DNA of 33,598 bases from Rubrivivax sp. (GTDB lineage: Bacteria > Pseudomonadota > Gammaproteobacteria > Burkholderiales > Burkholderiaceae_C), in assembly GCA_030693565.1 (NCBI GenBank), contig JAUYAJ010000698.1:1-33598 (forward strand), in the 5' to 3' direction. This document shows, one piece after another, positions 6,665 to 24,555 of the stretch; within the stretch, counting starts at the first letter, position 1, and each line of letters starts with the position of its first letter. The notes beneath the pieces were generated by a model. That model did not search any database. It had not been told where the DNA came from and saw nothing but the letters and a program-made list of their open reading frames with translations. Position numbers and translations under genes: made by a program.

Positions 6665-7521
6665 TCAACGCCGTCCTCCACATTCCGCCGTTTCGTGTCC
6701 GCTTGCGCTCACCGCTGGCGGAAGTCTGGCGCCATGTCGATCTCTTCTATCCGGGCGCTGACAGCGACGCCGTCGACATCTTCGTCGACTTCGACGTCGA
6801 GATTTCACATGGCGACGGTATCCGACGTCTTTGGCGTCGGCAGGCGCGCTTCCTGCTCGACGGCGCCGAGCCCTTCTTCCCGCTGCCCGCAGAGCAGGCC
6901 GCACCGATGTTCGAATGGGGGTTGAACTGGTGTGTCGCCCAGCGGCCGCTGGGCTACCTCGTGCTGCACGCAGCGGTCGTTGAACGCGACGGCGCCGCGC
7001 TGATGCTTCCGGGGTTTCCAGGTGCGGGCAAGAGCACCTTGTGCGCTGCGCTGACGCTGATCGATCGCTGGCGGCTGTTTTCGGACGAACTGGCGATCCT
7101 TGACCCGGCGGACGGCTTGCTGCTGCCTCACCCGCGGCCCATCTGCGTCAAGAACGACTCGATCGACCTCGTCGCCGCATTTCCGGGCAGCTGCGTTGGG
7201 CCCGTCTACCAAGACACGCGCAAAGGAACGATTGCACATCTGGCATGCGCACCGCAAGCACGCGAGCGTGCCGCCGAACGCGCGCGGGTGGCCTGGATCG
7301 TCTTTCCGCGCTTCGTCGCCGGGGGGCCGCTGCAGGTCGAGCGGATCAGCCGGGTTGAAGCGTTTGCCTGGATTTCTGAGCAGTCGTTCAACAAGGAGCG
7401 AATGGGCGAAGCCGGTTTCAAGGGGCTTTGCGATGTGCTCGACACTGCAGAGTGTTTTGAGCTGAGCTACGGCTCGACGGCGGACGCACTAGAGGGTATT
7501 GAGCGAATCTGCAGCCCATGA
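6661..7521 (+). CDS. HprK-related kinase A
   Basis: A 286-residue P-loop protein related to the catalytic domain of HPr Ser kinase/phosphorylase. It has LHAAVV (102-107), a Walker A GFPGAGKST (118-126) and the downstream acidic segment SDELAILDP (141-149) where HprK carries its Walker B. It lacks the N-terminal domain of true HprK, and no HPr gene is nearby, so a role in sugar PTS control is unlikely. Related HPr-kinase homologues in lasso-peptide clusters phosphorylate the peptide, which makes kinase action on a peptide or protein plausible here. The TTG start at 6661 overlaps the preceding stop by four bases. The stop overlaps the next ATG by four bases (ATGA). The substrate is unknown. Confidence 0.88.
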   Translation: MINAVLHIPPFRVRLRSPLAEVWRHVDLFYPGADSDAVDIFVDFDVEISHGDGIRRLWRRQARFLLDGAEPFFPLPAEQAAPMFEWGLNWCVAQRPLGYLVLHAAVVERDGAALMLPGFPGAGKSTLCAALTLIDRWRLFSDELAILDPADGLLLPHPRPICVKNDSIDLVAAFPGSCVGPVYQDTRKGTIAHLACAPQARERAAERARVAWIVFPRFVAGGPLQVERISRVEAFAWISEQSFNKERMGEAGFKGLCDVLDTAECFELSYGSTADALEGIERICSP

Positions 7522-8630: not shown

Positions 8631-9390
8631 GCAGCTCGGTCACAAATCGCACCGGGATCGCATAGGTGATGCCCGTGGGGTGGCTCAAGGCCGACTCCCG
8701 GGTGCCGCGGATCAGCACCATGTTGACGACGCCGACGACGCGCCCGGTCTGGACGTCGAGCACCGGTCCGCCGCTGTTGCCGGGGTAGGCGGTGGCGTCG
8801 AGCTGAAGGATGTCGAACGCGCCGTCGCGCAAAGTGGCGATGGCGCGTGCGCTCAGGCGCTCGGAGGTTGGCGCCGGCAGCGCGATGGCGCTGATCGACG
8901 CGATGATGCCGCGGTGCGTGACCGGCGCAAAGCCGAGCACGCCGCCGATCGGGAAGCCGATCAAGGCAATCGACGTGCCTTCGCGCGCCACCCCTGAGCC
9001 TTCGAGCGGCAGCGCCGGCAGCGGTGGACCTTCGATCTGCAGCAAGGCCAGGTCGTGGGTGCGGTCGCTGCTGATCAGCCTGGCCACGCGCCCTTCGAGT
9101 TCACGCCCGCCCTTGGGAATCTGGATCATCAAGGTCGGGCCCGAGGCGCTTTCCACCGCCCCGGGCAGGACGTGGAAGTTGGTGATCACCTGGGTGCCGT
9201 CGCCGACGACAAAACCCGTACCGCGAAAGCCGAAGCGCGGATTGTCGGTGGGGTTGTAGGTGCCGACGGCGACCACCGACGGCTTGGTGCTGGCGATGAG
9301 ATCGGGCAGCGACGCCTGCGCGGCGCTGCCGGCGAGCGCGACGGCGGCGAATGCCAGCCACCGCGCCGCCCGGCTCAGCAAACGCCTCAT
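8614..9390 (-). CDS. Secreted S1C-type (trypsin-like) serine protease without PDZ domain
   Basis: The 258-residue protein carries a Sec signal peptide (MRRLLSRAARWLAFAAVALA, cleavage near AQA-S27) and a complete chymotrypsin-fold triad: His73 in NFHVLP, Asp113 in THDLALL and Ser206 in GNSGGP. It resembles the DegP/HtrA protease domain but ends right after the protease fold (ITYAIPVRFVTELL), so there is no PDZ domain. It should act in the periplasm. Its ATG overlaps the stop of the upstream TPR lipoprotein by four bases (ATGA), so it is translationally coupled to the PrsT genes. A role in processing or quality control of PEP-CTERM or EPS components is inferred from that coupling. Its 3' end overlaps the convergent nucleotidyltransferase. 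Confidence 0.92.
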   Translation of the reverse strand: MRRLLSRAARWLAFAAVALAGSAAQASLPDLIASTKPSVVAVGTYNPTDNPRFGFRGTGFVVGDGTQVITNFHVLPGAVESASGPTLMIQIPKGGRELEGRVARLISSDRTHDLALLQIEGPPLPALPLEGSGVAREGTSIALIGFPIGGVLGFAPVTHRGIIASISAIALPAPTSERLSARAIATLRDGAFDILQLDATAYPGNSGGPVLDVQTGRVVGVVNMVLIRGTRESALSHPTGITYAIPVRFVTELLKGGR

Positions 9391-12152
9391 ACGCCCTTGA
9401 GCAATTCGCTGACTTCGGCGTGGTCGGTGAAGCGCTTGCCCAGCTTGGACAGCTTCTCAAGCTCGGAGCGCGCTTGCAGCTTGTCGCCGGCCTGCAGGTA
9501 CAGCCGCGCCAGGTTCAGCCGCATGCCAGCGTCGTCAGGCATGCGCTCGACGGTTTTCTTCTGCAGCTCCAGCGCCTTGGCAACCTGCTTGTCGGCCGCC
9601 AGCGACATCGCCAGCGTGTCCAGCAAGGCCGGCTGATCGGGCAGCAGCTGATTGGCCTTTTCCGCAAGGGCCAGCGAACCCGGCTTGGACTGTTTCACCA
9701 GCAGCCAGGCAATGTTGTTCAGCGCCAATGCGTTGTTGGGTTGCAGGCGGGCCACTTCGCGGTAGCGCAGTTCCGCCCCTGCCCAGTCCTTGCGGCCGAG
9801 CGCGGCGTCGCCGAGGTAGAAGCGGAACGCGATGTCATTGGCGTGCTCCTTTTCCCAGCTGGTGGCGAACCGGTCGGCTTCGTCGGCCTTGCCGGCGGTG
9901 TTCATCGCATGGTGGAGCTTGATCGCGGCCTCGGTCGACTTGGACTTCTGCAAGCCGGTGCGGAAGGCCGCCAGCGCTGCGTCCCAGTTCCTGCGCTGCA
10001 GCTCGACCTCGCCTTCGAGGTGGAAGCCGATGTCTTCGGCCGGACGCTCCTTCTGCACCGCGCGCGCGACCGCCAGCGCTTCCGGAAAGCGGCGATCGCT
10101 GTTCATCAGGCCGACCAGGCCGCGCTGCGCGACCAGCAGCTTGGGCGAGATCTCCAGCGCACGCTTGAGGCTGCGTTCGGCGGCGGCGAAGTCCTTCAGC
10201 CCGACATGGGCGTCAGCCTGGCCAAGCTGCGCGGCCGGCGAGTTCGGTTGCATCGTCGACAGCTTGTTGAAGGTCGACAGCGCTTGCTGGAAGTCGCTCG
10301 CGGCCAGCTGGCTGCGCCCCAGCGCATGCACCAGCTCGCGGCTGCTGGGAATGGCCGTCGTCGCGGCTTGTGCTGCCGCCAGAGCGGACTTGGTGTCGCG
10401 CGTGGCCAGATGGTGTTCGATCAGCTGCAGCCGCGGCCCGGCCTCGGTGGGAGCGGTCTTTACCGCCTGGGTGATCAGCGAGGTGATCTCCTGCGGGCTG
10501 CCGCCCGTGCGCGTCAGCAAGCTGGCCAGTGCCTGCATGGCACGGTGGTTTTTCGGCTCTGCCTTGAGCAAGTCGTCGAAGCGCTTGCGCGCGGCGTCGG
10601 GCTTCTTCTCGGTCAGGTCGAGCGCAGCCAGGCTGGCGACGGCGGGGAAATAGACCGGGTCGAGCTGCAACGCCTGCTCGAAGCTGCGGCGGGCGCCGGC
10701 GGCATCCTGGCGCATCATCAGCACGCGGCCGCGCAGGTTCGCCGCCAAAGGCTTGTCGGCCTGTTTGCGCTCGAGGGTGTCGATGGCCTTCAAAGCCTTG
10801 TCGAGCTCGTTGCGACGCAGATAGGTGGTCACCAGGGCCAGGTTGGCAGTGACGCCATCGTCGGCCGCAGACACCGCCTCGAGCTCGGCCAAGCCAGCAG
10901 CCGAGTTGCCCTTGCCGATCTGGCTCAAGGCCAGCGCGGTGCGGATGCGCGGATCGTCGGGCTTGGCTTTCGAAGCCCGCGTGAACAAGGCTTCGGCGCG
11001 CTTGACGTCGCCGGTGTGCAGGTAGGCTTCAGCGGCCAGCGTGACCATTTCGGCGCTGGCGCTGTCGCCCTCGATCACTGGCCGCAGCGTTTCCAGCGCC
11101 TTGTCGGCCTGACCGGTGCGCAGGTAGGTGCGGGCCAGCAACTGGCGCGCCATCGGCAGGCCGGGGGCCAGCTTGACGGCCTGGGCGAGCAAGGTCTCGG
11201 CCTGGGGTAGCGAACGCAGGTTGAACTCGGCGGCGCCCGCCAGTTGCAGCAGCAAGGGGTTGTTGGGGGCCAGTTGCAGCAAGGGCGCCGTCAGTTCACG
11301 GGTGGCCTGGTAGTCCTTGCGCAGAAAGGCCATCTGGGCGTCCAGCATGCGCGCCTGGGGGTGGTTGGGATGGGTCTTCTTCAGCTGCGCCACATGGGCT
11401 TGGGCCGCATCGAGTTCGCGCGCGGCGATCAGCAAGGTGACGATGCCTTGATGCGCCGCCATGGCGTCGCCTCGGCCTTCGACGGCTTTGCGATAGGCGG
11501 CCAGAGCCGCGGCCTGGTCGCGGGTGCCGAAGTGCAGGATCTCGCCCTTGAGCAACCAGGCGTCGGTGTTGCCGGGCTCGCGAGTGATGATGTCGTCGAG
11601 CAAGGCCAATGCGGCGGGGAAGTCGCCGGTGCCGGCGCTCATGCGCGCCTTCATGATCTTCGCCGGCGCATGGTCGGGCGCTGCCGCCAGCGCGTCGGCG
11701 ATCGCCTGGGCCGTCAGCTCGCGCTTGTCCTGGCGCGCGTAGGCCGCGGCCAGGGTCGTCTTCAGGTCGGCTTGCGCCGCCGCGTCGCTCAAGGTGACCT
11801 GGGCGTAGTTCTCGGCGACCTTGCGGTCTTCACCGGCCAGCAGCATGGCCTTGGCCAGCGCTGGCGTGACCAGGGTGTCCTGGTACTTCAGCTCGGCGGC
11901 CTTGCGAAGCTCCACGGCCGCGGCGACGGCGTCGCCGCTGTCGAGCAAGGCCTTTCCCAGCAGGTAGCGGGCCTCGGCGGACTGCGAGTTGCCTTGCAGC
12001 GCCGTCTTCAGCTGGATGATGGCCGCCGCAGGGTCCTTCTTCTCCAGATAAGTCTTGGCCGAGGCGATGAGGTCACCTTCGGACGGGCCGCTGCAGGCCT
12101 GGAGGCTGAACGCCAGCGCGATGACCAGCGCAGTGAGGCGAAGTGTGTGCAT
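9387..12152 (-). CDS. prsT: PrsT, PEP-CTERM system TPR-repeat lipoprotein (second copy)
   Basis: About 921 residues made almost wholly of tetratricopeptide repeats after a lipoprotein signal (MHTLRLTALVIALAFSLQAC; lipobox LQAC). The frame opens earlier (12209), but the ATG at 12152 puts the signal peptide at the N-terminus, so I choose it. The opening SEGDLIASAKTYLEKKD and length of about 900 match the PrsT family, found beside PrsK and PrsR in genomes with exosortase systems. The protein should be lipid-anchored and face the periplasm; whether in the inner or outer membrane is not evident. Its function is not established; assembly of or scaffolding for EPS export is the usual suggestion. It follows a paralogue by 53 bases and its stop overlaps the protease start. 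Confidence 0.92.
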   Translation of the reverse strand: MHTLRLTALVIALAFSLQACSGPSEGDLIASAKTYLEKKDPAAAIIQLKTALQGNSQSAEARYLLGKALLDSGDAVAAAVELRKAAELKYQDTLVTPALAKAMLLAGEDRKVAENYAQVTLSDAAAQADLKTTLAAAYARQDKRELTAQAIADALAAAPDHAPAKIMKARMSAGTGDFPAALALLDDIITREPGNTDAWLLKGEILHFGTRDQAAALAAYRKAVEGRGDAMAAHQGIVTLLIAARELDAAQAHVAQLKKTHPNHPQARMLDAQMAFLRKDYQATRELTAPLLQLAPNNPLLLQLAGAAEFNLRSLPQAETLLAQAVKLAPGLPMARQLLARTYLRTGQADKALETLRPVIEGDSASAEMVTLAAEAYLHTGDVKRAEALFTRASKAKPDDPRIRTALALSQIGKGNSAAGLAELEAVSAADDGVTANLALVTTYLRRNELDKALKAIDTLERKQADKPLAANLRGRVLMMRQDAAGARRSFEQALQLDPVYFPAVASLAALDLTEKKPDAARKRFDDLLKAEPKNHRAMQALASLLTRTGGSPQEITSLITQAVKTAPTEAGPRLQLIEHHLATRDTKSALAAAQAATTAIPSSRELVHALGRSQLAASDFQQALSTFNKLSTMQPNSPAAQLGQADAHVGLKDFAAAERSLKRALEISPKLLVAQRGLVGLMNSDRRFPEALAVARAVQKERPAEDIGFHLEGEVELQRRNWDAALAAFRTGLQKSKSTEAAIKLHHAMNTAGKADEADRFATSWEKEHANDIAFRFYLGDAALGRKDWAGAELRYREVARLQPNNALALNNIAWLLVKQSKPGSLALAEKANQLLPDQPALLDTLAMSLAADKQVAKALELQKKTVERMPDDAGMRLNLARLYLQAGDKLQARSELEKLSKLGKRFTDHAEVSELLKGV

Positions 12153-12205
12153 GGAGTGCCCGGAGTTTCGTTTGGATTGAGGGGTCATCGAACAGCAGTG
12201 TCGGC

Positions 12206-14986
12206 TCACAGTGTCGCCAGCAGGCGCGCAACTTCGGCTTGCCCGCCGTACTGCGTGCCGAGATCGGCCAAGGCCTGCAGTTCCTTGCGGGCCTGGGCCT
12301 TGTCGCCTGACTGCAGGTAGATCTTGGCCAGCGACAGACGCAGGATGTGTTGATCGGGTTGGCCGGCCAGCGCTCGACGCTGAATCTCGATCGCGCGGAC
12401 GAACTGGCCTTCGGCGGCCAGAGCGAGCGCCAAGGTGTCCATCAGTGCCGGCCGTTCCGGGGCAATCTGGTTGGCCTTTTCTGCAAACGGCAGCGCACCT
12501 GACTTGTTCTGCTTCAGCAGCATGTAGGCAAGGTTATTGAGCGCCAGCGAGTTGTCGGGCTGCAGGTCGACCACAGCGCGGAAGCTGCGCTCGGCTGCCG
12601 CATGTTCTTCTCGCAGCAACGCGACATCGCCCAGATGGATGAGAAACACAACATCCTTGGGAAACTCCTTGACCCATTGCTGAGCCATCTGTTCGGCGGC
12701 GGCATGTTGTGCGCTGGCCACCAGCGTCCCATGCACTTTGGCCGCCAGTTGGGCGACGCGTTCACGCTGCAGGCCGGTGCGATAGGCTGCCAAGGCCGAG
12801 GTCCACTGCTCCTTGCGAGCGTGTACATCGCCTTCGTAAAGCCAGCCGACCGCTTGTTTGGGACGCTGTTTCTGGATCTCACGTGTGACCCGTAGCGCTG
12901 CGTCATGGCGACCACTGTCCAACTGAACTGCAATCAGTGCACGCTGTCCGTCCAAATGAGTCGGCTCGAGCTCAAGCAGTCGATTCAAGGTCTGTTCGGC
13001 CTCGCGATGGTTCTTCATCGCAAGTTGTACGTCGGCCAGCCGCAGGTAGGCGTTGGGTGATCGCGGCTCAAGAGCAACCAACTTGCGAAAGCTGATCAGA
13101 GCCTGCTCGCTGTCGCCGGACTTGAATTGCGCTCGCCCTAGCAAGGCCAGAAGTTGCGGATTGTTCGGGATGGTCGCGACGGCGTCCTGAGCGGCGCTGA
13201 GGGCGGTCTTGGCATCGTTGCGATCAAGAAGCCCCCGGATCAAGAGAATTCGCGGCGCGGGCTCCGTCGGACTCAGCCGGGCGGCTTCAGCGATGATCTT
13301 GCGCACATCCTCGGGCGTGCCGCCGGTGCGTTCGCGCAGTTCGCCTAAGGCGAGCATCGCTATCGTGTGCTTGGGGTCGACCTTGAGAATGGCCTCGAAG
13401 CGCTGTTTGGCTTGATTGGGCTTGGCGTCGATCAGGTCCTGCTCTGCCAGCGCCGTGGCAGCGGGAAAGTAAGTCGACTCGATCGCCAGAGCGCGCTCGT
13501 AGCTCTTTGCGGCGGCGCTCGTGTTCTGCTGCCGGGTGTAGATGCGGCCCCGCAGATAGCTTGCAAACGGTCGATTGGGCTGCTTGGACTCGAGCAGTTC
13601 GATGGCCTGGAGCGCCTTGTCAAGACTATTGCTCCGCATGCGGGCGCTGATCAAGGCCATGTCGGCGTAAGTGCCAGGGTCGCTGGCGGCGACGGCCTCG
13701 AGTTCAGCGAAGGCGGCACTGGCGTCGCCACCGGCCAGCCGCCGAAGCGCCACCGCGGTGCGGATTTGCGGGTCGTTCGGGTTGATCTTGGCGGCGCGGG
13801 CGAACAGTTGCTCGGCCTGCCGGGTGTCGCCCTTGAGCAGGTAGGCCTCGGCGGCAAGCGCCAGGCTGTCCGCGGTCGGCGAGCTGACTCCCAGCAGCGG
13901 CGCCAGCGCAGCGAGTGCCTTTTCGACCTGGCCTGAATGGAGGTAGGTCTGGGCCAGCAACCGCCGGGCCAGCGCCAGATCGGGCGCCAGTTGCACAGCC
14001 TTGGCCAGATGCTGCTCGGCTTGCAGCAGCTTGTTGTCCTGCAGCTCGATCGCCCCAGCCAGTTGCAGGATGCGGAAATTGTCAGGCACGAGCTTCAACA
14101 GCAGTTGGGCGATCTCGCGCGCCTTGGCCGACTCGCCCCGCATGTAGTAGAGCTGTGACTCGAAGAACTTGGTTTGCGGGTGATTGGGCAACACCTTGCG
14201 CAGCTCTTCGATTTGCGCTTCGGTGCGCTGGCTGTCGCGCTGCTCCATCAGCACCGCCAGCATGTTCATGTGGGCGGGCAGATAGCGCGGATCGGCGTCC
14301 AGCGCTTTGCGGAAATCGGCCAGTGCCGGCGCACGGGCACTGGCCGTGAACAGTGCCAGGCTGCCTTTGATCGTCCATGCTTCGGCGTTCTTTGGCTCCT
14401 TGGCCAAAACTTGCTCGCACAGCGCCAGCGCGCCGCTGAAGTTGCGCGCGGCGCCAAGCAGGCGGGCTTTGAGCAGCAGCGCTGGCGCGAAGTCCGGCGA
14501 CGCCGCCAACGCGTCCTCGACGACAACTTCCGCACGATCGTTGGCGCCGAGTTGCAGGTGAGCGGCGGCGACGCTGGTCTTCAGGTCGGCGATCGAGACC
14601 GGATCCTGAAGGCGTGTGCGCGAAAATTGCGCCACCACTTGCTTGGCGTCGCGCTGAAGCAGCAGCGCGCGCGCCAGCGCTGGCAGCACATCGTTGTCGT
14701 CGTGCTTCAGGTCCAGGGCTTTCTGAAGTTCCAGCGCCGCCGCTGCGGCGTCGCCGGATTCCAGCAAGGTCTTGCCCAACAGGAAACGTGCTTCGCCCGA
14801 TTGCGGGTTGCGTTGCAGCGCCGCCTTGAGCTGGATGATGCCGGCCTTGGTGTCCTTCTGCTCCAGATAGGACTTGGCCGAGGCGATGAGGCTGCGATCG
14901 GACTCGCCGGCGCAGCCGCCCATTGCCGTCACGACGAAGGCCATGCTGAGGGCGAGGGCGATGCGTGCGGTGCCTGTGGAATTCAT
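12206..14986 (-). CDS. prsT: PrsT, PEP-CTERM system TPR-repeat lipoprotein (first copy)
   Basis: About 926 residues of TPR repeats behind a lipoprotein signal ending in the lipobox-like GGC at about residues 22-24 from the ATG at 14986-14984. This ATG has AGGAG 7 bases upstream. The longer open frame to 15295 is an antisense read-through into prsR and is rejected. The N-terminal segments, such as SLIASAKSYLEQKD and IIQLKAALQRNPQSGEARFLLGKTLLESGDAAAA (shown in part), are closely similar to the downstream copy, so the two arose by duplication. The gene is 20 bases downstream of prsR, in the same direction, and should be co-transcribed with it. PrsT-type lipoproteins co-occur with EPS and PEP-CTERM systems; molecular function is unproven. 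Confidence 0.92.
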   Translation of the reverse strand: MNSTGTARIALALSMAFVVTAMGGCAGESDRSLIASAKSYLEQKDTKAGIIQLKAALQRNPQSGEARFLLGKTLLESGDAAAAALELQKALDLKHDDNDVLPALARALLLQRDAKQVVAQFSRTRLQDPVSIADLKTSVAAAHLQLGANDRAEVVVEDALAASPDFAPALLLKARLLGAARNFSGALALCEQVLAKEPKNAEAWTIKGSLALFTASARAPALADFRKALDADPRYLPAHMNMLAVLMEQRDSQRTEAQIEELRKVLPNHPQTKFFESQLYYMRGESAKAREIAQLLLKLVPDNFRILQLAGAIELQDNKLLQAEQHLAKAVQLAPDLALARRLLAQTYLHSGQVEKALAALAPLLGVSSPTADSLALAAEAYLLKGDTRQAEQLFARAAKINPNDPQIRTAVALRRLAGGDASAAFAELEAVAASDPGTYADMALISARMRSNSLDKALQAIELLESKQPNRPFASYLRGRIYTRQQNTSAAAKSYERALAIESTYFPAATALAEQDLIDAKPNQAKQRFEAILKVDPKHTIAMLALGELRERTGGTPEDVRKIIAEAARLSPTEPAPRILLIRGLLDRNDAKTALSAAQDAVATIPNNPQLLALLGRAQFKSGDSEQALISFRKLVALEPRSPNAYLRLADVQLAMKNHREAEQTLNRLLELEPTHLDGQRALIAVQLDSGRHDAALRVTREIQKQRPKQAVGWLYEGDVHARKEQWTSALAAYRTGLQRERVAQLAAKVHGTLVASAQHAAAEQMAQQWVKEFPKDVVFLIHLGDVALLREEHAAAERSFRAVVDLQPDNSLALNNLAYMLLKQNKSGALPFAEKANQIAPERPALMDTLALALAAEGQFVRAIEIQRRALAGQPDQHILRLSLAKIYLQSGDKAQARKELQALADLGTQYGGQAEVARLLATL

Positions 14987-15006
14987 GTGGGATCTCCTGG
15001 CCGCGG

Positions 15007-16374
15007 CTATTTGATCGCCAGCCGATGCATCAAGTCGTAAAGCGTGGGCCGGCTGACGCCGAGCATCTCCGATGCTTTGGCGATGTTGCCATTGGCGCGC
15101 GCCAGCGCCGCCAAGATGGCCTGGCGTTCGGCATTTTCGCGAACCATGCGCAGATCGAGGTCGCGCGGAGCGTCGCCGTCTGCGTCGGTGGATGGTGCCG
15201 TCAAGCCGATGTCGGCGGCGCTGATGCGTTGGCCTTCGGCCATGATCGTGGCGCGCTTGGTCGCGTTGAGCAACTCGCGCACATTGCCCGGCCATGCGTG
15301 AGCCTCGATGGCTTTGAGCGCATCGTCGCTGAAGTTCATGCCCACGCGCTTTTGATCGTTGGCGAAGCGGCGCAGGAAGGCATGGGCCAGCAGCACGGCG
15401 TCACCTTGGCGGGCACGCAGCGGCGGGATGTCGACGACGATTTCGGCCAGCCGATAGTAGAGATCCTCGCGAAACCGGGTCTCCTTGATCAGCGCCATCA
15501 AGTCCTGATGGGTGGCGCAGACGACGCGCACGTCGACTGCAATTTCCTGCCTGCCGCCCAGGCGCTCGATTTTTCGCTCCTGCAAGAAACGCAGCAGCTT
15601 GGCTTGCAGCGAGTGAGGCAGGTCGCCGATCTCGTCGAGCATCAAGGTGCCGCCGTTGGCCGTTTCGATCTTGCCGACCGTGGTCTTGCTGGCGCCGGTG
15701 AAAGCGCCCTTCTCGTAGCCGAAGAGCTCGCTCTCGAGCAGATTTTCGGGAATCGCAGCGCAGTTGATGGCGACGAAGCGACCACTGCGCTTGGACGCCT
15801 GGTGCAGTCCCTGCGCCAGCACTTCCTTGCCGGTACCGCTTTCACCCAGCAGCAGCACGGTGGCGTCGCTGCTGGCGACGCGTTCGATCATGCGCGCAAT
15901 GCGCATCATCTCGGGGTCGCGCGTCATCAGGTCTTCGAGTGCGTCGGGCTGGTGCAAGGCCTGCAGGCGCTTGTTTTCGGCCTGCAGCTCGGCCATCCGG
16001 TAGGCGCGCTCGATGGTCAGTGTGAGGATGTCCGGGTCAAAGGGCTTGGCCAGGAAGTCATAGGCGCCCAGCGCCACCGCGCGCAAGGCGTGAGCCTGGT
16101 CGTTCTGCCCGGTCAGCACGATGACCTTGACGCCGGAGTCCAGATCCAGCATCTGCTCCAGCAGCTTGAACCCCTCGGTCACCGAGTCCGGGTCCGGCGG
16201 CAGGCCCAGATCCATCGTCACCACAGCGGGTTGATGGCGGCGAAATTGTGCGATCGCGCTTTCGCGGTCGCTGGCGGTCACCGACTCGAAACCGTCGAGC
16301 GCCCATTTGATCTGCTTTTGCAGCGCCAGATCGTCTTCGACGATCAGCAACGGGGTCGAGTGGTTTGCGCTCAT
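15007..16374 (-). CDS. prsR: PrsR, sigma-54-dependent response regulator of the PEP-CTERM system
   Basis: The 455-residue protein has a receiver domain (1-120; phospho-acceptor Asp55 in TMDLGLP, Lys110 in LAKPF), a sigma-54 AAA+ domain (about 145-380) and a Fis-type helix-turn-helix at the C-terminus ([20 protein letters not shown]). Walker A GESGTGKE (177-184), the sigma-54 contact GAFTGA (223-228) and Walker [12 protein letters not shown] (241-251) are intact, so it should be an active enhancer-binding protein. It overlaps prsK by four bases (ATGA), as cognate pairs often do. PrsK/PrsR is known to drive PEP-CTERM genes from sigma-54 promoters. A matching control region lies at 21025-21110 in this window. 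Confidence 0.95.
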
Positions 16375-18482
16375 GCAGGCGTGGACAGATGGAGGTCGGA
16401 GTGGGCCGAGGCTTCGAAAAGTGGCAAGGTCAGGCTGATCACGGTGCCGCGCCCGAGCGCGCTGTCGACCGCGATGATGCCGCCAAGCTCCTGGATGTAT
16501 TGCGCGCTTTCGTACGATCCGATGCCCATGCCGGTGTGCTTGGTGCTGCTGAAGGGGCGGAACAGTTGTGTGCGCACGAAATCCTCGCTCATGCCGGCGC
16601 CGTTGTCGCCAACCTCGACCCGAACCTGGCCGCTGTACCGAGCGACGCCAACCCAGACCCGGCCCGATTCGGGCGTGGCGTCCAGTGCGTTGTCGACAAG
16701 ATGACCCAGTACCCGCTCCAGACGATCGTCGTGCCCCCGAGTGGCCAGACCGCTGTCGCAGTCGACCTCGATGTTTCGGCCTCGGGAGCTCGCCATGGCC
16801 GCCAGGCGTTGAAGAATCGGCGCCAGTTCAACACCCCGCGCACCGCCCGGCGGTGTCGCGCCTTCACGCAGTTGCAGCATCAAGCGCCGCATCTTCTCCA
16901 GTGAGCTCTGCACCGTCAACAGCATGTCTTGCTGGAATTCGGGGTTGCCGTGATGGCGTTCCGCATTCTTCAACATCAAGGCCAGCTGGGTGACGATGTT
17001 CTTCAGATCGTGGACGACAAAAGCCGACATGCGGTTGAAAGCGTCGAATTTGCGCGCTTCGAGCAAGGCTTCTGTGGCCTGCATCTGCGCCAGGAAACCG
17101 GCCGCCTGGCGGCCGGCTGTCTTGAGCAGGTCGCGCACTTCCCAATCGAGGTCCATCGACGTGCGAGGCCTGGCCAGGGTCACGAAACCCAGCAAGTCAT
17201 CGCCAGCCAGCAGCGGGATGACGAGCCAGATGTTCTCGCTGCCCAGCATCCAGGCCGGCATCGCCAGTTTTTCGTAGCGGCGCGGCGAATTGCGGTACTC
17301 GTCGATGTTGATCACCCAGCCGGTCTCGAGCAGAAAGCTCGCCAGTTCCGACCCCGGGTTCTCCTGCGCGGCGATGGCGGGCGCGTTCCAGTTCGCCACT
17401 TGCCGGTAGCTGGCCTGGGCGCCGGCGCGGGTCCAGAGGCTGCCGCCGGGCGACTCGACCATGTCGGCCAGACCCCGGATCACCAGACCACCGACCTCCT
17501 GCGCCGAGCCACGGGTCGACAGCATGTTCGTGAAGCGCAACCACTCCTCGCGGTAGTCGTATCGATAGCTGAAGAAGTGCTTGCCGACGAAGACGCGAAT
17601 CCAGGCGCGCAATGAGCCCGACAGTGCCAAGGCGATCAGAAAAGCCAGTCCGGCCGCCGCCAGGCCGAGTTGCAGCGCGTTGCCCCATTCGCCGCCGAAG
17701 AAGCGCACGTAGTAGCCGACCGCCGACATGAACAGCAAGTAGCCGCCGCCGAGCAGCAAGGTGGCCGAGTGGAATGCCGCCGAGCGCGAGACCTCGAGCC
17801 GGCGGATCCAATCTGCGTGGCGGCGCGTGGCCACCAGCAACAGCGGAATTGCCAGCGTGTGCACGCCGCCGCGAATGGCCTGGGCGTCGGGATCAAAACG
17901 GCCGAACAGCAAGGCTTCGGAGCTCGTGTAGAGGTCGAAGGCGAAGACAAGACCCAGGCCCAGACAGACGGGTTTGGCGTTCCAGCGTGAATCTTCGGCC
18001 AGATTGCGGAACAGCTGCTCCACGAGAACGAGGCCGAACAGCGGCAGGCTCATGGCCACGGCGAGCTGGAGGCGCGAGGTTTCAGCTGCCGACGAGTCCG
18101 CGATGAAGCGATGCACCATCGTCGCGGCCGCTGCGGCCAGCACCAAGACCGCTGCCGGCAGCAACAAGCGCGGCGCCCTGGCGCTTGCGTCGCTCAGCGC
18201 CGGCCGCAGCAGCGTCAGCACAAAGGCAAACCACAGCGCGTAGCGCGCCAGATCTGCCAGCGCGGCGACATGGGCGGCTGTCTGCGTCTGCGAGAAGGGG
18301 TCCGCCAGCGCAGCCAGTGCCCAGGCGGCGCTGGCGAGAATGGCGGCAATGAACAGCCGCGGGCCGGGCCCAGGCTCGGGTTTGCGACGCCCCAGACGGA
18401 CGAGATGGATGGCAAACGCCAGGTGCAGCAGCGCTGCAAGCGCATGGCCGTAGATCGTCAGCTCTTCAGTCGCGCCACCCAT
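16371..18482 (-). CDS. prsK: PrsK, membrane histidine kinase of the PEP-CTERM system
   Basis: 703 residues. The N-terminal 290 residues form a polytopic membrane domain with roughly eight to ten hydrophobic segments. A GAF-like region follows (about 320-450), then the kinase core: H-box FVVHDLKN (His491), N-box HLVDNALDATP (Asn598), G1 DNGAGM (626-631) and the GMGIGSY segment (651-657). Architecture and length fit PrsK. The H-box reads HDLKN where many kinases have HELRT, which is usual for this family. The signal is unknown. It starts 65 bases after the sugar transferase stop on the same strand and its stop overlaps the prsR ATG. The operon order is therefore sugar transferase - prsK - prsR - prsT - prsT - protease. 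Confidence 0.95.
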   Translation of the reverse strand: MGGATEELTIYGHALAALLHLAFAIHLVRLGRRKPEPGPGPRLFIAAILASAAWALAALADPFSQTQTAAHVAALADLARYALWFAFVLTLLRPALSDASARAPRLLLPAAVLVLAAAAATMVHRFIADSSAAETSRLQLAVAMSLPLFGLVLVEQLFRNLAEDSRWNAKPVCLGLGLVFAFDLYTSSEALLFGRFDPDAQAIRGGVHTLAIPLLLVATRRHADWIRRLEVSRSAAFHSATLLLGGGYLLFMSAVGYYVRFFGGEWGNALQLGLAAAGLAFLIALALSGSLRAWIRVFVGKHFFSYRYDYREEWLRFTNMLSTRGSAQEVGGLVIRGLADMVESPGGSLWTRAGAQASYRQVANWNAPAIAAQENPGSELASFLLETGWVINIDEYRNSPRRYEKLAMPAWMLGSENIWLVIPLLAGDDLLGFVTLARPRTSMDLDWEVRDLLKTAGRQAAGFLAQMQATEALLEARKFDAFNRMSAFVVHDLKNIVTQLALMLKNAERHHGNPEFQQDMLLTVQSSLEKMRRLMLQLREGATPPGGARGVELAPILQRLAAMASSRGRNIEVDCDSGLATRGHDDRLERVLGHLVDNALDATPESGRVWVGVARYSGQVRVEVGDNGAGMSEDFVRTQLFRPFSSTKHTGMGIGSYESAQYIQELGGIIAVDSALGRGTVISLTLPLFEASAHSDLHLSTPA

Positions 18483-18547
18483 GTGCGAAGCTTACGCTGT
18501 GCCTCGCTGGCCCGGGCGGCGCGCGGGCACCCCCCGTTGCAGAGCGG

Positions 18548-19930
18548 TCAGCGCGCCCCCTTGCCGGTCAGCACGACGCCCACAGTCTCGAGCAAGATGA
18601 TGGCGTCGAGGAACAGCGAGTGGTTCTTCACGTAGTAAAGGTCGTACTGGAGCTTTTGCTGCGCGTCCTCGACAGTCGCGCCATATTGGTAGCGCACCTG
18701 GGCCCAGCCGGTGACGCCGGGCTTGACGCTGTGGCGGACGGCGAAGTAAGGAATCTGCTGGGTCAGCTGATCGACGAAGAAGGGCCGCTCGGGACGCGGG
18801 CCCACCAAGCTCATGTCGCCGCGCAGCACGTTGAAGAGTTGCGGCAGTTCGTCGATTCGCAGCCGGCGGATGATGGCGCCAACACGGGTGACGCGGTCAT
18901 CCTGCAAGCTGGCCCAGCGCGGCTTGCCGTCTTGCTCGGCGTCGGTGCGCATGCTGCGGAACTTGGCGACCATGAAGGTGCTGCCGTTGATGCCGACACG
19001 TTCCTGGCGATAGACCAGCGGGCCGCGACTGTCCAGTTTGATCAACAAGGCAGCGATGATCATCACCGGCGCCGACAACACGATCAGCAGCAGCGCAAAG
19101 ACGACGTCGAACAAGCGCTTGACCGCCGAACGCAAGGCGCCTTGATTGAAACCGTCACCGAAAACCAGCCAGCCGGCATTGACGAACTCCACCCGGATGA
19201 GCCCGAGGCGTTTCTCGAAGTGGGTAGCCAGGTCGTAGACCTTGATGCCGAACAGCTTGCAGTCGAGCAACTGGCGCAGCGGCATGCTGCCGGCGCGGCG
19301 TTCCGTCAAGGCGACGATGATCTCGTCGACGCCGTGCTCGTGGGCAATTTGAGTCAATGGACGGTCGCCATTGAGAATCATCTTGAGCGGAACGGCAGGC
19401 TCGCTTTCGTTCGGACCCGGGACATAGCCGACGATCTGGGCCAGCGGATCCGAGTCCTCCAAGGTGTCGCCGACGATCTTCGCGGCCTTGCCGGTGCCAA
19501 AGATCAGCACTCGGGTGCGCTCGCCAGTGACCGCGCCCGAGTGGGTGACATAGATTCGCCGCATCAGCACCGCGGCGACCCCGACCATGGCGGAGATCTG
19601 CACCGTCAGACGAGTTTGCGGTTCGGCCGGCAGCAGCCCAAAGATGACATAAGTCAACGGCAAGGCCAGCATCAAAGCCAGCGTCGCTCTGGCGCAGGTC
19701 TGAACCAGCGTGACATTGCCTGATTTCTGGTAGACGCCCGACGCCGTGCCGATGACGAAGACGCCGGCCGTCAGCGACAGCACCTGGGTGCTGGCGATTG
19801 GCAGCCAGTTGTTCAGGTACTCGAACTGCGTTGACAGCGCGGCCAGCAAGGCCACGACCAGGAAGCCCAGATCAGCCAGGGCCTGCCGGAGCGTGTCGCG
19901 ATGGAGGTAGTGGTTGAAGATCCGAATCAT
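18548..19930 (-). CDS. XrtA/PEP-CTERM-associated undecaprenyl-phosphate sugar-1-phosphate transferase
   Basis: This 460-residue protein is a polyisoprenyl-phosphate hexose-1-phosphate transferase that loads the first sugar onto undecaprenyl phosphate. The N-terminus has about four membrane segments. A CoA-binding-like nucleotide fold follows (RVLIFGTGKAAKIVGDTL). A fifth long hydrophobic segment (FDVVFALLLIVLSAPVMII) precedes the catalytic domain, with the signatures GPLVYRQERVG, MVAKFRSM, LRIDELPQLFNVLRGDMSL and VGPRPERP. It belongs to the exosortase-locus subfamily (EpsB-like). The ATG at 19930 has a weak GGA site 6 bases upstream. It heads the minus-strand operon with prsK and prsR. In related genomes this gene lies next to the export and chain-length genes; here they are about 5 kb away, separated by the istB remnant and the PEP-CTERM and acyltransferase genes. 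Confidence 0.95.
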   Translation of the reverse strand: MIRIFNHYLHRDTLRQALADLGFLVVALLAALSTQFEYLNNWLPIASTQVLSLTAGVFVIGTASGVYQKSGNVTLVQTCARATLALMLALPLTYVIFGLLPAEPQTRLTVQISAMVGVAAVLMRRIYVTHSGAVTGERTRVLIFGTGKAAKIVGDTLEDSDPLAQIVGYVPGPNESEPAVPLKMILNGDRPLTQIAHEHGVDEIIVALTERRAGSMPLRQLLDCKLFGIKVYDLATHFEKRLGLIRVEFVNAGWLVFGDGFNQGALRSAVKRLFDVVFALLLIVLSAPVMIIAALLIKLDSRGPLVYRQERVGINGSTFMVAKFRSMRTDAEQDGKPRWASLQDDRVTRVGAIIRRLRIDELPQLFNVLRGDMSLVGPRPERPFFVDQLTQQIPYFAVRHSVKPGVTGWAQVRYQYGATVEDAQQKLQYDLYYVKNHSLFLDAIILLETVGVVLTGKGAR

Positions 19931-21094: not shown

Positions 21095-21110
21095 TGGCAT
21101 GGAATCTGCT
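21095..21110 (+). promoter_or_regulatory. Sigma-54 (-24/-12) promoter of the PEP-CTERM gene
   Basis: TGGCATGGAATCTGCT fits the sigma-54 consensus TGGCACG-N4-TTGCW at 10 of 12 fixed positions, with the invariant GG and GC ten bases apart. Transcription would begin near 21121, leaving a leader of about 35 bases before the ATG at 21156. PEP-CTERM genes in XrtA bacteria are typically RpoN- and PrsR-dependent. Confidence 0.78.
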
Positions 21111-21155: not shown

Positions 21156-22037
21156 ATGTCAAATCTAAAAGTAGGCTCAGTCCTTGCCGGCGTGCTGATG
21201 TCCTTGGGCGCCGCCAGTTCGGCGCAGGCGTTTGCCATCGTCGCTGGCAATTACAAGATCACCATCGACGCGCACGATTCCGCGACGACGACTTATGCGC
21301 CAGCTGGGCCTGGTGTGAAGTGCGTGGATATTGCCACTTGCAACGCGGCCGGTATTCCGCCTGCCCTGGGTAGCATTGGTTCAGTGAACCCGGGCGCCGA
21401 CACCTTGGGCATCTTTTCAGTGGCATCGATTACGAACATCGTCACGTCCGCGAACTTCTTCACACGCGGTGTGGACGGCTTTCTGACTGGCATCTTCAGT
21501 AACTTGACGGACTTCTATGTCGAGAACACAGGGCTCGGCGGGGCGACCACAAACACCAACGCCTCCGGTGGAACGTTCAAGATGTGGCTCAACGCGGCCG
21601 ATTTCAATCCGTTGCTCGGTCCGACCGTTGCGGTGGGAAAAGATCTGAATGCGCACCTGTACCCGGGCATCAGCGGCGGCGCGCTGTATCTTGAAGGTAA
21701 CTTTGCCTCCGGGATTGGTGGGCCCGCCGATGCGGTGACCACGTGGGCAACGAACTTCAATTCCACGAGTTTGGTAGGTGGGGGCGCTGGATACCTCGAC
21801 TTCACCGGCGGCAGCGCGCTCGCGAATTTCAACACAGATTCCCACGTCGTGGCGCCTGGCGTCACCCGTGATGCACTTGCGCAGTTCACCTTCAGTCCCA
21901 TCGGGGCGGCGAGCGGTTGGACCGTCGTTGCGACCGGTGACATCCGCGGCAATGTGATTCCCGAGCCTGGCTCGTTGGCGCTGGTGGCTTTCGGCCTGTT
22001 GGCGGCCGGCGGACTGGCGCGCCGCAAGCAAGCTTGA
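21156..22037 (+). CDS. PEP-CTERM sorting-domain surface protein
   Basis: 293 residues with a Sec signal peptide (cleavage probably after AQA at 23-25) and a C-terminal sorting signal: Pro269-Glu270-Pro271 in VIPEPGSLAL, a hydrophobic segment (272-287) and a basic tail ARRKQA. Exosortase A should cut at the PEP motif and pass the protein to the envelope or EPS matrix. The body is Gly/Ala/Asn/Thr-rich with beta-strand character, typical of these poorly conserved substrates; no enzymatic domain is visible. The ATG has GGAGAG 5 bases upstream. It is a single-gene unit between a sigma-54 promoter and a hairpin, close to the prsK/prsR operon. Its specific role (matrix or floc adhesion) is inferred. 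Confidence 0.95.
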   Translation: MSNLKVGSVLAGVLMSLGAASSAQAFAIVAGNYKITIDAHDSATTTYAPAGPGVKCVDIATCNAAGIPPALGSIGSVNPGADTLGIFSVASITNIVTSANFFTRGVDGFLTGIFSNLTDFYVENTGLGGATTNTNASGGTFKMWLNAADFNPLLGPTVAVGKDLNAHLYPGISGGALYLEGNFASGIGGPADAVTTWATNFNSTSLVGGGAGYLDFTGGSALANFNTDSHVVAPGVTRDALAQFTFSPIGAASGWTVVATGDIRGNVIPEPGSLALVAFGLLAAGGLARRKQA

Positions 22038-22356: not shown

Positions 22357-23781
22357 TCATTGCCCTGGCGGGGCCGAGATCAGATAGGGAAACTTGCGCT
22401 CGAAGTCGAGCATCGGTCGCCAGGGGAAGGCAGATGGTGCCGCCACAGTGATGTGCAGCGGCAGTTGACGCCCTGCGTTGATGAGCGCCTCGATTCGGTC
22501 GATCAATGCCGGGTCGGCCGCCGCGGCAGCGTTGGTGGCCTGCAAGGTCAGCGTCGCCGCGCCGCGGGTGTCGTGGGCGAGGCGGAAGGCGCCGCTGAGT
22601 TGGTCGGCGACCTCGTGTTCGGTATACAGTAGTTCCTTCAGCTCTTCGGCCGACGGCAGACCTGTGGCGCGGTCGCTGCTGCGGCCGCAGACAATTGCCA
22701 CGGGAAGCCACGGCGGTTCGCAGCCTGCAATGGCGGCGGCCGTGCAGACGGCGGTGCGCTCGACCAGGCGGCCGACGTCGCCGGTGGCGTAGCGCGGCAG
22801 CGGGATCACCGCATCGGCGTCGATGATGGTGAAGCAGAGCTCGCCGAAGCCGTTGGCGTCTGGGTTCAGCACCTCGACATGGCAGCGCAGCGGGTTGTAG
22901 CAGAACACCGAGGGCATCGACGGCCCTGCGGCCCGGCCGGCGAGCAGCTGTTCGACGCCGGCCTGGTTGCGCATGGCGCGTCGGAGCTGGATCGTCTCGC
23001 GGGTTTCGAAGAGCAGGTTGAGGCCGAGTTCGCCGACGCCGAAGGAGCTCAGCACGGCGCGCGACCCGCCGCCGTTCAAGTCGATGCCCATCTTGGCCGC
23101 GATGTATTCGCGCTGCGACTCGACCAGCACTTCCTCGCCGATGATCACGCTGGTGTTGAGCGCCCGCCAGTCGATCTGATTCGCTTCTCCCTGCGCCAGC
23201 AGGCGGCGGATGAACAAGGGGTCGCTGCAGATCAGGGTCTGCTCGAAGCGTGGACCGACGTCGCGCAAGATGGCGCAAGCCATGTCCTCGCGCACGCTGA
23301 CGTTGGCCACGGTGACGGCGCGGGAGGAGAACACCACGCCCATCGGCAGGCAATTGACGAGCAGCGTCGAGCGGTCATCGACACCGAACGCGTCCTGCAA
23401 ACCGAGGTCGATGTTGAACCAGGCCCGTTCGTGCGACTTGCGCGCGCTCAGGCGGAAGCCGAAGGTGCGGCCGCCGCGGCCCGAACTGGTCAGCACGTCG
23501 GCGAGGTTGGTGGCCGGCAACTCGCGCGACAACTCGTCGACCGTGAAGCGGCCGAAGGTGTTGTCTTTGTCCAGCACCGGCAGGGCGTCGAACTCGGCCC
23601 GCGCGGCGTCGACGCCCGCCTCAAGCAAGAGCTGTTGGTAGGCGCGACTGCTGCGTGCCGCGCATTCGGCCATGCGCGCAGCGCCAGCGCGGCTGCGCGC
23701 CAGCATGCGTTCGATCGGCATGCCTCTGGCCAGGTGCAGCAGCACTCGCCGGACCAGCCGACGGCCGAAGGCCAGTGTCAT
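22357..23781 (-). CDS. Adenylate-forming enzyme (PaaK/CapK-like) of the exosortase region
   Basis: The 474-residue protein resembles phenylacetate-CoA ligase/CapK-type adenylate-forming enzymes. It has the Ser/Gly-rich nucleotide loop TSSGRGG (98-104) and the YATGDVGRL motif (RYATGD; conserved Y/x-TGD ATP-ribose-binding segment), with a C-terminal subdomain after it. The loop has Arg where many relatives have Thr, so activity cannot be assumed. The substrate is unknown; an acyl or carboxylic acid activated as AMP or CoA ester is the expected chemistry. It lies 18 bases after the acyltransferase gene on the same strand. The pair may act in sequence: this enzyme activates an acid and the acyltransferase transfers it, or the reverse. 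That is inference from pairing. No strong ribosome site precedes the ATG at 23781. Confidence 0.82.
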   Translation of the reverse strand: MTLAFGRRLVRRVLLHLARGMPIERMLARSRAGAARMAECAARSSRAYQQLLLEAGVDAARAEFDALPVLDKDNTFGRFTVDELSRELPATNLADVLTSSGRGGRTFGFRLSARKSHERAWFNIDLGLQDAFGVDDRSTLLVNCLPMGVVFSSRAVTVANVSVREDMACAILRDVGPRFEQTLICSDPLFIRRLLAQGEANQIDWRALNTSVIIGEEVLVESQREYIAAKMGIDLNGGGSRAVLSSFGVGELGLNLLFETRETIQLRRAMRNQAGVEQLLAGRAAGPSMPSVFCYNPLRCHVEVLNPDANGFGELCFTIIDADAVIPLPRYATGDVGRLVERTAVCTAAAIAGCEPPWLPVAIVCGRSSDRATGLPSAEELKELLYTEHEVADQLSGAFRLAHDTRGAATLTLQATNAAAAADPALIDRIEALINAGRQLPLHITVAAPSAFPWRPMLDFERKFPYLISAPPGQ

Positions 23782-23799
23782 TCGCCTGCGCGGCGCCGA

Positions 23800-24555
23800 T
23801 CAGCTGTTGTTGCCATCCGGTCGCTGCAGCCAGGCCAGCAGGGCCGGGTTGCTGCGACCGACGTCGGTTTCCATCTGCCGCAAGTCCATCAGATAAGGCG
23901 CGACCGGGCCGAAGTAGTCGGTCTCCGGACCGAGCTGGCGGAACTTGAAGTCCATGCGCTGGAGCGAGCGCGCCAGCGGCCGCTCCATCGCTGCATACCA
24001 GTAGCGCACGCCAGCCTTGAGGCTGTTCTGGTACATCTGCCGGTACATGCTGAGCAGGATCTGCGGCGACTCCATGCGCCGCTCGCCGGCGACGGGTCCG
24101 TTGCCGTCGGCGGTGTTGACGCCAGACAACACGTCGCCGCGCCGGCGCCGGTAGTCGCGGCGCACCATCAGCCGGCTGATCTCGCCGGCCTGGCCGGCCG
24201 GCGGCAGTTCGATACCCGGGAGCAGGTTGGTGCAGAAGCGCTGCCAAGGGAACTCGCCGTCTTCGTCGGCCGGCACCAGTCGCACATAGCCGACCAGTTC
24301 CTTCTGCAGGTTGTAGGCGTAGAAGTGAGCCGAATCGTCGTCGTAGTCGTCGGACTCGCGGCGTTCCGGGTACTCCTCTGCTTCCAGGAAGTGACACTCT
24401 TCGCAGTACACCTGGTACCGCAGCTCTTGCGCGCTCTGCATCATGGTGCCGTCCTCGTCGTTGTGACCCGAATGGGCAACAAAGTATGGTGCGAAGTCGA
24501 CGACATCAGCAGCGGTGTTACGGATGGTTTCGCCTTTGTCAGCGCGTTCAGTCAT
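23800..24555 (-). CDS. PEP-CTERM/exosortase-associated acyltransferase (autoinducer-synthase-like GNAT)
   Basis: The 251-residue protein resembles LuxI-type acyl-homoserine-lactone synthases and the PEP-CTERM/exosortase-associated acyltransferase family. Visible features are the RYQVYCEECHFLEAEEYP block (46-63, where LuxI has RxxVF...), the acidic SDDYDD stretch (68-73), HFYAYNLQKELVGYVRLVP (acyl-CoA/ACP-binding strand) and EISRLMVRRDYRRRRG (core helix start). The ATG at 24555 has AGAGG 6 bases upstream, so I prefer it to the upstream ATG at 24645. It could make a diffusible signal or acylate a polymer or lipid; neither is proven for the family. It is divergent from the EPS operon with about 300 bases between them, and is followed by the adenylate-forming gene. 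Confidence 0.88.
   Translation of the reverse strand: MTERADKGETIRNTAADVVDFAPYFVAHSGHNDEDGTMMQSAQELRYQVYCEECHFLEAEEYPERRESDDYDDDSAHFYAYNLQKELVGYVRLVPADEDGEFPWQRFCTNLLPGIELPPAGQAGEISRLMVRRDYRRRRGDVLSGVNTADGNGPVAGERRMESPQILLSMYRQMYQNSLKAGVRYWYAAMERPLARSLQRMDFKFRQLGPETDYFGPVAPYLMDLRQMETDVGRSNPALLAWLQRPDGNNS

What the first reader, a model, noticed from the sequence alone, without database searches (positions are those of the whole stretch)
22357..24555. Acyltransferase plus adenylate-forming enzyme pair divergent from the EPS operon
A LuxI-like GNAT protein and a CapK/PaaK-like adenylate-forming protein are 18 bases apart. The pair would be able to activate and transfer an acid, which could make a signal or acylate the EPS or its lipid anchor. 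The loop TSSGRGG has Arg where Thr is common, so catalysis may be altered. Neither product nor substrate is known.
Basis: partly seen in the sequence, partly recalled or inferred. Interest (0 to 1): 0.55.

Follow-up and report, generated by a model that had tools for sequence, protein, structure and literature searches.

The report
Paired lipid enzymes beside PEP-CTERM gene
Two neighbouring bacterial genes most likely make a fatty amino-acid lipid and then activate it with ATP, and they sit beside a gene for a surface protein of the PEP-CTERM sorting system; the activating enzyme belongs to a family with no existing name, and related bacteria replace it with an unrelated enzyme expected to do the same job.

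Summary
[quoted passage not shown] The second (22357-23781, minus) is a PaaK-like adenylate-forming enzyme, here called CAP, of a family no Pfam or NCBIfam model covers. The pair stands between an XrtA exopolysaccharide operon and a PEP-CTERM protein gene that has a sigma-54 promoter.

CAP was found beside a TIGR03694-type NAS at all 13 loci recovered, and beside a PEP-CTERM gene at 12 of 13. It keeps to one NAS subclade, marked by Val at residue 218 (Arg in the other 40). In three CAP-less members of that subclade, one from the window's own genus, a ThiF/E1-like adenylating enzyme takes CAP's place. Two unrelated adenylating families alternating in one spot suggests the conserved step is ATP activation of a carboxylate.

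Precedent: in TyzABC/OxzAB a NAS makes N-acyl-tyrosine and a ThiF homologue cyclises it with ATP to an acyl-oxazolone. I infer that CAP adenylates the NAS product; substrate, product and link to protein sorting are untested. The Arg in TSSGRGG is one case of a family-wide change (Arg, His or Gln for Thr), not a defect of this copy.

The parts
23800..24555 (-). [quoted passage not shown]
   Evidence: TIGR03694 4.7e-64 over cut-off; Pfam PF13444, PF21926 FeeM; predicted fold (pLDDT 69) matches AHL synthases and FeeM 2g0b
24181..24183 (-). NAS Glu125, candidate catalytic Glu (equivalent role to FeeM Glu95 / Nas354 Glu103)
   Evidence: invariant in 62 aligned NAS together with R46, E67, D69, D72, R92, R128; role from PMC4897644; the exact residue match to FeeM is inferred
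23902..23904 (-). NAS Val218 in YFGPV, diagnostic of the CAP/ThiF-linked subclade (Arg in other TIGR03694)
   Evidence: Val in 22 of 22 subclade rows, Arg in 40 of 40 others; also Val in both NAS of G019
22357..23781 (-). CAP: PaaK-like adenylate-forming enzyme of an unnamed family
   Evidence: hhalign to PaaK 98.7%, E 2.8e-16; PDB PaaK E 1e-8; no Pfam match in 12 members; NCBIfam only below cut-off
23470..23490 (-). CAP altered P-loop TSSGRGG (PaaK: SSGTTGK)
   Evidence: TSSG then Arg (5), His (7) or Gln (1) in 13 members, never Thr; PaaK set has SSGTTG
21156..22037 (+). PEP-CTERM protein gene, convergent with CAP; weakly like flocculation protein PepA and THxN family
   Evidence: C-terminal PEPGSLALVAFGLLAAGGLARRKQA; NF033554 PepA 4.9e-5, NF038125 THxN 5.6e-4, TIGR02595 above cut-off
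21095..21110 (+). sigma-54 -24/-12 promoter TGGCATGGAATCTGCT, 46 bases upstream of the PEP-CTERM gene
   Evidence: 2 mismatches to TGGCACGN4TTGCW; 3 of 200 shuffles as good; like the mapped Aquincola pepA promoter (PMC9850573)
24854..32726 (+). XrtA/PEP-CTERM exopolysaccharide operon, divergent: export protein, chain length, tyrosine kinase, OMP, ATPase, WecB, deacetylase
   Evidence: TIGR03027, 03007, 03018, 03016, 03015, 00236, 03006 all over cut-off
9387..19930 (-). PEP-CTERM regulatory and EPS genes: PrsT x2, PrsR, PrsK, EpsB-type glycosyltransferase
   Evidence: TIGR02917 (9387-12209 and 12206-15295), TIGR02915 (15007-16374), TIGR02916 (16371-18482), TIGR03013 (18548-19930), all over cut-off

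Best explanation
The module is a two-step lipid pathway attached to a PEP-CTERM surface-protein locus. Step 1: the NAS transfers a long acyl chain (from acyl-ACP or acyl-CoA) to the amino group of an amino acid or similar amine. Step 2: CAP, a PaaK-type enzyme, uses ATP to adenylate the free carboxylate of that N-acyl product, which then closes to an oxazolone or, more likely since no desaturase is present, is joined as an ester or amide to a second molecule. The lipid serves the PEP-CTERM/exopolysaccharide matrix in which the neighbouring sigma-54-controlled PEP-CTERM protein acts. Shown here: gene identities, strict linkage, co-inheritance, exchange of CAP for a ThiF-type adenylating enzyme, promoter. 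Inferred: CAP's substrate and that it is active. Unknown: acyl chain, acceptor, final product.
For: NAS family with FeeM/LuxI fold and invariant residues. CAP is a PaaK relative (Foldseek of a poor model also puts PaaK, NatL2 and AjiA1 on top), with A5 Glu251, A7 Asp335, A8 Arg367 and Lys463 invariant. CAP lies beside a NAS at 13 of 13 loci, 10 of them in whole genomes, while 35 of 43 order genomes with TIGR03694 over its cut-off lack CAP. CAP and NAS trees group the loci alike. In V-type NAS loci without CAP (G019 of the same genus, G334, G416) a ThiF protein lies at the same place; apart from one lone extra NAS copy, each V-type locus has exactly one of the two. Precedent: TyzB, a ThiF homologue, does ATP-dependent cyclisation of N-acyl-Tyr made by the FeeM-like TyzA (PMC10404671); NatL2, a PaaK-family enzyme, makes an ester instead of a CoA thioester (PMC7204872). 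PEP-CTERM gene within 4 kb of the NAS at 13 of 14 V-type against 11 of 40 R-type loci and 0 of 20 control regions. A mutant of a NAS annotated to this family in Methylomonas LW13 loses its polysaccharide band (PMC11072679).
Against: CAP's P-loop lacks the Thr-Thr-Gly-Lys of PaaK, so adenylation is not assured. The PaaK and ThiF partners could act on different molecules. No desaturase (nitroreductase-type) gene was found at CAP loci, so a TyzABC-type desaturated oxazolone is not expected from these loci alone. Two CAP genomes (G113, G068) also carry a ThiF-nitroreductase fusion elsewhere. Only three CAP-less ThiF loci of the subclade are seen and two (G334, G416) share a genus. Loci are related, so the Fisher values are not corrected for shared descent. 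The CAP structure model was poor (pLDDT 50).
Confidence: 0.5

Rival explanations
1. CAP acts first: it is an acyl-CoA ligase (aryl or unusual fatty acid) that loads the acyl donor which the NAS then transfers.
For: PaaK relatives are CoA ligases. AHL synthases that use acyl-CoA, including aryl-CoA (RpaI, BjaI), are among the nearest solved structures of this NAS. Some XrtA loci carry another AMP-forming acyl-CoA ligase (TIGR03098, from memory).
Against: In the same place relatives use a ThiF/E1-type enzyme, a superfamily not known to me to make free acyl-CoA thioesters. In TyzABC the ATP step comes after N-acylation (PMC10404671).
Confidence: 0.22
2. The pair makes a diffusible AHL-like signal.
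For: The NAS fold is that of AHL synthases; a LuxR-type HTH gene lies beside the NAS in G113 and G068.
Against: No LuxR-type gene was found among the window genes scanned with Pfam or the other CAP-locus neighbours scanned; the constant neighbour is a PEP-CTERM protein gene.
Confidence: 0.13
3. CAP is catalytically dead or a regulator or scaffold of the NAS.
For: Family-wide loss of the P-loop Thr-Thr-Lys.
Against: A5 Glu, A7 Asp, A8 Arg and a C-terminal Lys stay invariant across about 30% identity; TSSG is kept and a basic or polar residue stands at the changed position; relatives replace CAP by a ThiF protein that keeps its catalytic motif (NxNRQ...K...D).
Confidence: 0.1
4. The lipid made here is the anchor that exosortase attaches to the neighbouring PEP-CTERM protein.
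For: Near-constant PEP-CTERM neighbour; exosortases are thought to leave an unknown new moiety on their substrates (PMC11980579); a Neisseria relative named as a PEP-CTERM-associated NAS makes N-acyl-ornithine and N-acyl-lysine (PMC9762135), which I take to keep a free side-chain amine.
Against: Within the genus XrtA is common (9 of 10 genomes over cut-off or cut by a contig end) but NAS was found in only 4 of 37 genomes, so it cannot be the general acceptor.
Confidence: 0.12

Closest known systems
PEP-CTERM/exosortase-associated N-acyl amino acid synthases (TIGR03694; Craig 2011)
   Same: NAS over the family cut-off, beside a PEP-CTERM gene and XrtA-type EPS genes
   Different: Val instead of Arg at residue 218 and a strictly linked PaaK-like partner; I recall no such partner being described
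Acyl-oxazolone pathways TyzABC (Mycobacterium) and OxzAB (Pseudoalteromonas)
   Same: NAS followed by an ATP-dependent carboxylate-adenylating enzyme; V-type relatives use a ThiF protein like TyzB
   Different: CAP is of the PaaK/ANL superfamily, not ThiF; no nitroreductase desaturase at CAP loci; product unknown
Phenylacetate-CoA ligase PaaK and PaaK-family AMP ligases (NatL2, AjiA1)
   Same: Overall homology and motifs A5, A7, A8, candidate A10 Lys
   Different: P-loop TSSG(R/H/Q) in place of SSGTTGK; no aromatic-catabolism context; below PaaK cut-offs
LuxI/AHL synthases
   Same: Fold and core acidic and Arg residues of the NAS
   Different: Family is NAS by TIGR03694; no adjacent LuxR in the window

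Membership tests
TIGR03694 PEP-CTERM/exosortase-associated acyltransferase (NAS) | score above curated cut-off | tested here: met
   216.1 bits against 111.95
TIGR03694 PEP-CTERM/exosortase-associated acyltransferase (NAS) | FeeM/LuxI fold and conserved catalytic Glu | tested here: met
   Foldseek LasI 1.5e-8, FeeM 2g0b 4e-6; Glu125 invariant; exact match to FeeM Glu95 inferred
TIGR03694 PEP-CTERM/exosortase-associated acyltransferase (NAS) | makes N-acyl amino acids | not testable with these tools
   shown for family members in the literature only
PaaK phenylacetate-CoA ligase (TIGR02155) | matches the curated family model | tested here: not met
   window CAP has no TIGR02155 hit at E 0.01; the best of 12 family members is only 1.8e-9
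PaaK-like / ANL superfamily | profile homology over most of the length | tested here: met
   hhalign 98.7%, E 2.8e-16, 368 columns
PaaK-like / ANL superfamily | P-loop [TS]SGTTGK | tested here: not met
   TSSG(R/H/Q)
PaaK-like / ANL superfamily | A5 Glu, A7 Asp, A8 Arg | tested here: met
   Glu251, Asp335, Arg367 invariant; A7 and A8 aligned to PaaK by hhalign, A5 matched by eye
PaaK-like / ANL superfamily | A10 catalytic Lys | tested here: inconclusive
   Lys463 in D(F/Y)ERKF invariant but outside the profile alignment; structure model poor
TyzABC/OxzAB acyl-oxazolone pathway | NAS gene | tested here: met
TyzABC/OxzAB acyl-oxazolone pathway | ThiF-type cyclase | tested here: not met
   no close ThiF of this family in the window genome (only a 3.9e-24 housekeeping-level hit; genome 76% complete); CAP in its place
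TyzABC/OxzAB acyl-oxazolone pathway | nitroreductase-type desaturase | tested here: not met
   no hit at window or CAP loci; present at R-type NAS loci L064, L066, L079, L083
TyzABC/OxzAB acyl-oxazolone pathway | oxazolone product | not testable with these tools
   needs chemistry
LuxI/LuxR quorum-sensing system | cognate LuxR regulator adjacent | tested here: not met
   none among window genes scanned; PF00196 neighbour only in G113 and G068
XrtA/PEP-CTERM system locus | EPS operon, PrsK/R/T, PEP-CTERM substrate, XrtA in genome | tested here: met
   XrtA fragment cut by contig end, 207 bits against 208

The most novel reading that the evidence does not exclude
The NAS plus an interchangeable adenylating enzyme (PaaK-type or ThiF-type) builds an activated lipid that is joined to the neighbouring PEP-CTERM protein, either directly or through exosortase, giving that protein its own lipid anchor. 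This would name an acceptor for at least some PEP-CTERM proteins.
Probability: 0.1. Interest if true: 0.88.

Novelty: new variant of a known kind. Interest (0 to 1): 0.58.

Why it matters
Why PEP-CTERM bacteria keep N-acyl amino acid synthases beside their surface-protein genes is unexplained. The finding adds a second, ATP-using step: a PaaK-like family without a name, swapped in relatives for a ThiF-type enzyme whose counterpart TyzB is known to act on N-acyl amino acids. That gives a concrete, testable chemistry (activation of the N-acyl amino acid carboxylate) and a small set of loci in which to look for the lipid and for its effect on PEP-CTERM protein attachment, an open question in exosortase biology.

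Tried and rejected
Structure prediction of CAP with the five permitted rows gave pLDDT 50 and is used only as weak support. The 16 distant CAP-like proteins in class and phylum samples (E 1e-24 to 1e-44; most end in GVKHRYTRR or similar) showed no NAS beside them and are a different family. Plasmid records: no CAP match at 1e-10. A NAS-ThiF fusion, suspected from the length of NCBIfam model PRK14852, could not be confirmed: hits covered ThiF (and in one case more) but not the N-terminal part. A sigma-54 site upstream of the NAS in the window: none; sigma-54-like matches over the whole window are no more frequent than in shuffles, so only the positioned site counts. Sigma-70-like promoters near the pair: none. 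Craig 2011 is not held in the library, so its content is from memory. The idea that Arg102 marks a damaged copy was rejected. The idea that the NAS product is the general exosortase acceptor was rejected because most genomes of the genus lack a NAS although XrtA is common.

Full report
OBSERVATION. CAP is 22357-23781 (-), 474 aa; the GNAT is 23800-24555 (-), 251 aa, with an 18-base gap and a plausible ribosome site GAGAGG before the ATG at 24555. To the right, on the + strand from 24854, is an XrtA-type EPS operon (TIGR03027, 03007, 03018, 03016, 03015, WecB, 03006). To the left lie a PEP-CTERM protein gene (21156-22037, +), then EpsB-type transferase, PrsK, PrsR and two PrsT genes. The window is contig 662 of a 76%-complete genome; XrtA itself is on another contig, cut at its end.

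THE GNAT. It is TIGR03694, far over the cut-off, and hits PF13444 and FeeM PF21926. Its predicted structure (pLDDT 69, pTM 0.71) matches AHL synthases and FeeM. R46, E67, D69, D72, R92, E125 and R128 are invariant over 62 NAS. Nas354 E103A shows that the NAS Glu is needed (PMC4897644). The N. meningitidis protein annotated as a PEP-CTERM-associated NAS makes N-acyl-ornithines and -lysines (PMC9762135). From memory, Craig, Cherry and Brady 2011 showed that this family makes N-acyl amino acids and that NAS genes lie beside PEP-CTERM genes; the paper is not held, its title is cited by held papers.

THE PARTNER. CAP matches no Pfam family, nor do eleven relatives. Against NCBIfam only sub-threshold PaaK, FlxY, DVU1553 and F390 hits appear. 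Profile comparison with PaaK gives 98.7%, E 2.8e-16, and PaaK structures are the best PDB hits. In 12 aligned members (31-63% identity to the window) T98-S99-S100-G101, E251, D335, R367 and K463 are invariant. Residue 102 is Arg in five, His in seven and Gln in one of 13 members, never Thr. So the altered P-loop is a family trait, and the rest of the site is kept.

LINKAGE. CAP was sought in 61 relatives, 399 order, 369 class and 399 phylum genomes (overlapping samples) and in the GTDB contigs. It was found in 10 genomes and three further contigs. All 13 loci have a TIGR03694-type NAS next to CAP; in G035 the two are divergent, with a second NAS nearby. At 12 of 13 a PEP-CTERM gene is close by, usually the next gene; the exception, L005, is a short contig. 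Control regions of the same genomes had none in 20. In the order sample 43 of 399 genomes have TIGR03694 over its cut-off and 8 of these have CAP. The CAP and NAS trees agree in their main groups.

A SUBCLADE. All CAP-linked NAS fall in one clade of 22 rows (SH-aLRT 94). At residue 218 these have Val in 22 of 22, all other NAS have Arg in 40 of 40. The five rows of the clade without CAP are four NAS of G334 and G416 and a lone extra copy in G363. G019, of the window's genus, also has two V-type NAS and no CAP.

THE EXCHANGE. In G019, G334 and G416 the place between NAS and PEP-CTERM gene holds a ThiF/E1-like protein (PF00899, E 1e-31 to 1e-34). It keeps the GxGxxG, NxNRQ, K and D residues of adenylating ThiF/MoeB enzymes (roles from general knowledge). 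Thus each V-type locus has CAP or ThiF, never both; only the lone G363 copy has neither. Eight of ten CAP genomes have no close ThiF relative; G113 and G068 have one elsewhere, fused to a nitroreductase. Among R-type NAS loci four of the 40 surveyed have a ThiF within about 4 kb, and several carry a nitroreductase (L064, L066, L079, L083). Those resemble TyzABC and OxzAB, where a FeeM-like NAS makes N-acyl-tyrosine, a ThiF homologue cyclises it with ATP, and a nitroreductase-type oxidase desaturates it (PMC10404671). No nitroreductase of that kind was found at CAP or V-type ThiF loci.

INFERENCE. Two unrelated carboxylate-adenylating families alternating in one place beside one NAS subclade is best explained by a shared function: ATP activation of a carboxylate, most likely that of the N-acyl amino acid. 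What happens next (ring closure, ester or amide) is open. NatL2 shows that PaaK-type enzymes can make esters without CoA (PMC7204872). The Val218 change may reflect a different acceptor; this is a guess.

REGULATION. The PEP-CTERM partner has a sigma-54 -24/-12 site within 30-113 bases of its start at 11 of 13 genes (window: TGGCATGGAATCTGCT, 46 bases), the NAS at 1 of 13 (Fisher p 2e-4, not corrected for descent). This agrees with the PEP-CTERM regulon (PMC1569441) and with Aquincola pepA, whose RpoN-dependent promoter is TGGCAC/CTGCTT and whose overexpression shifts EPS from soluble to bound (PMC9850573). NAS and CAP thus appear to be outside this regulon.

ROLE. Disruption of a PEP-CTERM-associated NAS in Methylomonas LW13 abolishes its polysaccharide band, restored by complementation (PMC11072679). 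But in the window's genus XrtA is common while NAS was found only in G000, G019, G026 and G035 of 37 genomes. The module is therefore an accessory of the PEP-CTERM matrix, not a core part. G486 has the triple without a detectable XrtA.

LIMITS. No chemistry was done. Loci share descent, so counts overstate independence. The window genome is incomplete. CAP's structure is not modelled well. The literature search covers open papers only, so prior notice of CAP or of the exchange cannot be excluded.

Noticed in passing
L064, L066, L079, L083/L160, L159: R-type NAS loci near PEP-CTERM genes carry ThiF and/or nitroreductase-type genes, resembling acyl-oxazolone pathways (TyzABC/OxzAB) within PEP-CTERM regions.
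   Followed up: partly
L155 6177-8171, L156 5542-7533: ThiF-nitroreductase fusion proteins (about 665 aa) within a few kb of PEP-CTERM genes in two CAP-bearing genomes, on other contigs than CAP.
   Followed up: partly
L008 7560-10065 and 16017-16802; L004 721-1536: MacB/FtsX-type permeases, an ABC ATPase and a LolA-like protein near NAS-CAP pairs: possible export of the lipid product.
   Followed up: no
L044 11113-12276, L045 6794-7996: A LuxR-family HTH gene divergent from the NAS in two genomes of one family.
   Followed up: no
L110-L125, L127-L142: A distant CAP-like family of about 500-550 aa, most with C-terminus GVKHRYTRR or similar, without NAS neighbours.
   Followed up: partly
window 9387-15295: Two PrsT genes in tandem, both strong TIGR02917 matches.
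   Followed up: no
window 7518-8630; L046 5581-6681: PF14907 nucleotidyltransferase gene in the window's PEP-CTERM region and near the V-type NAS of G334; role unknown.
   Followed up: no
G035 C682:8261-9022 (L164): The CAP-bearing relative has a third NAS of the R type besides two V-type copies.
   Followed up: no
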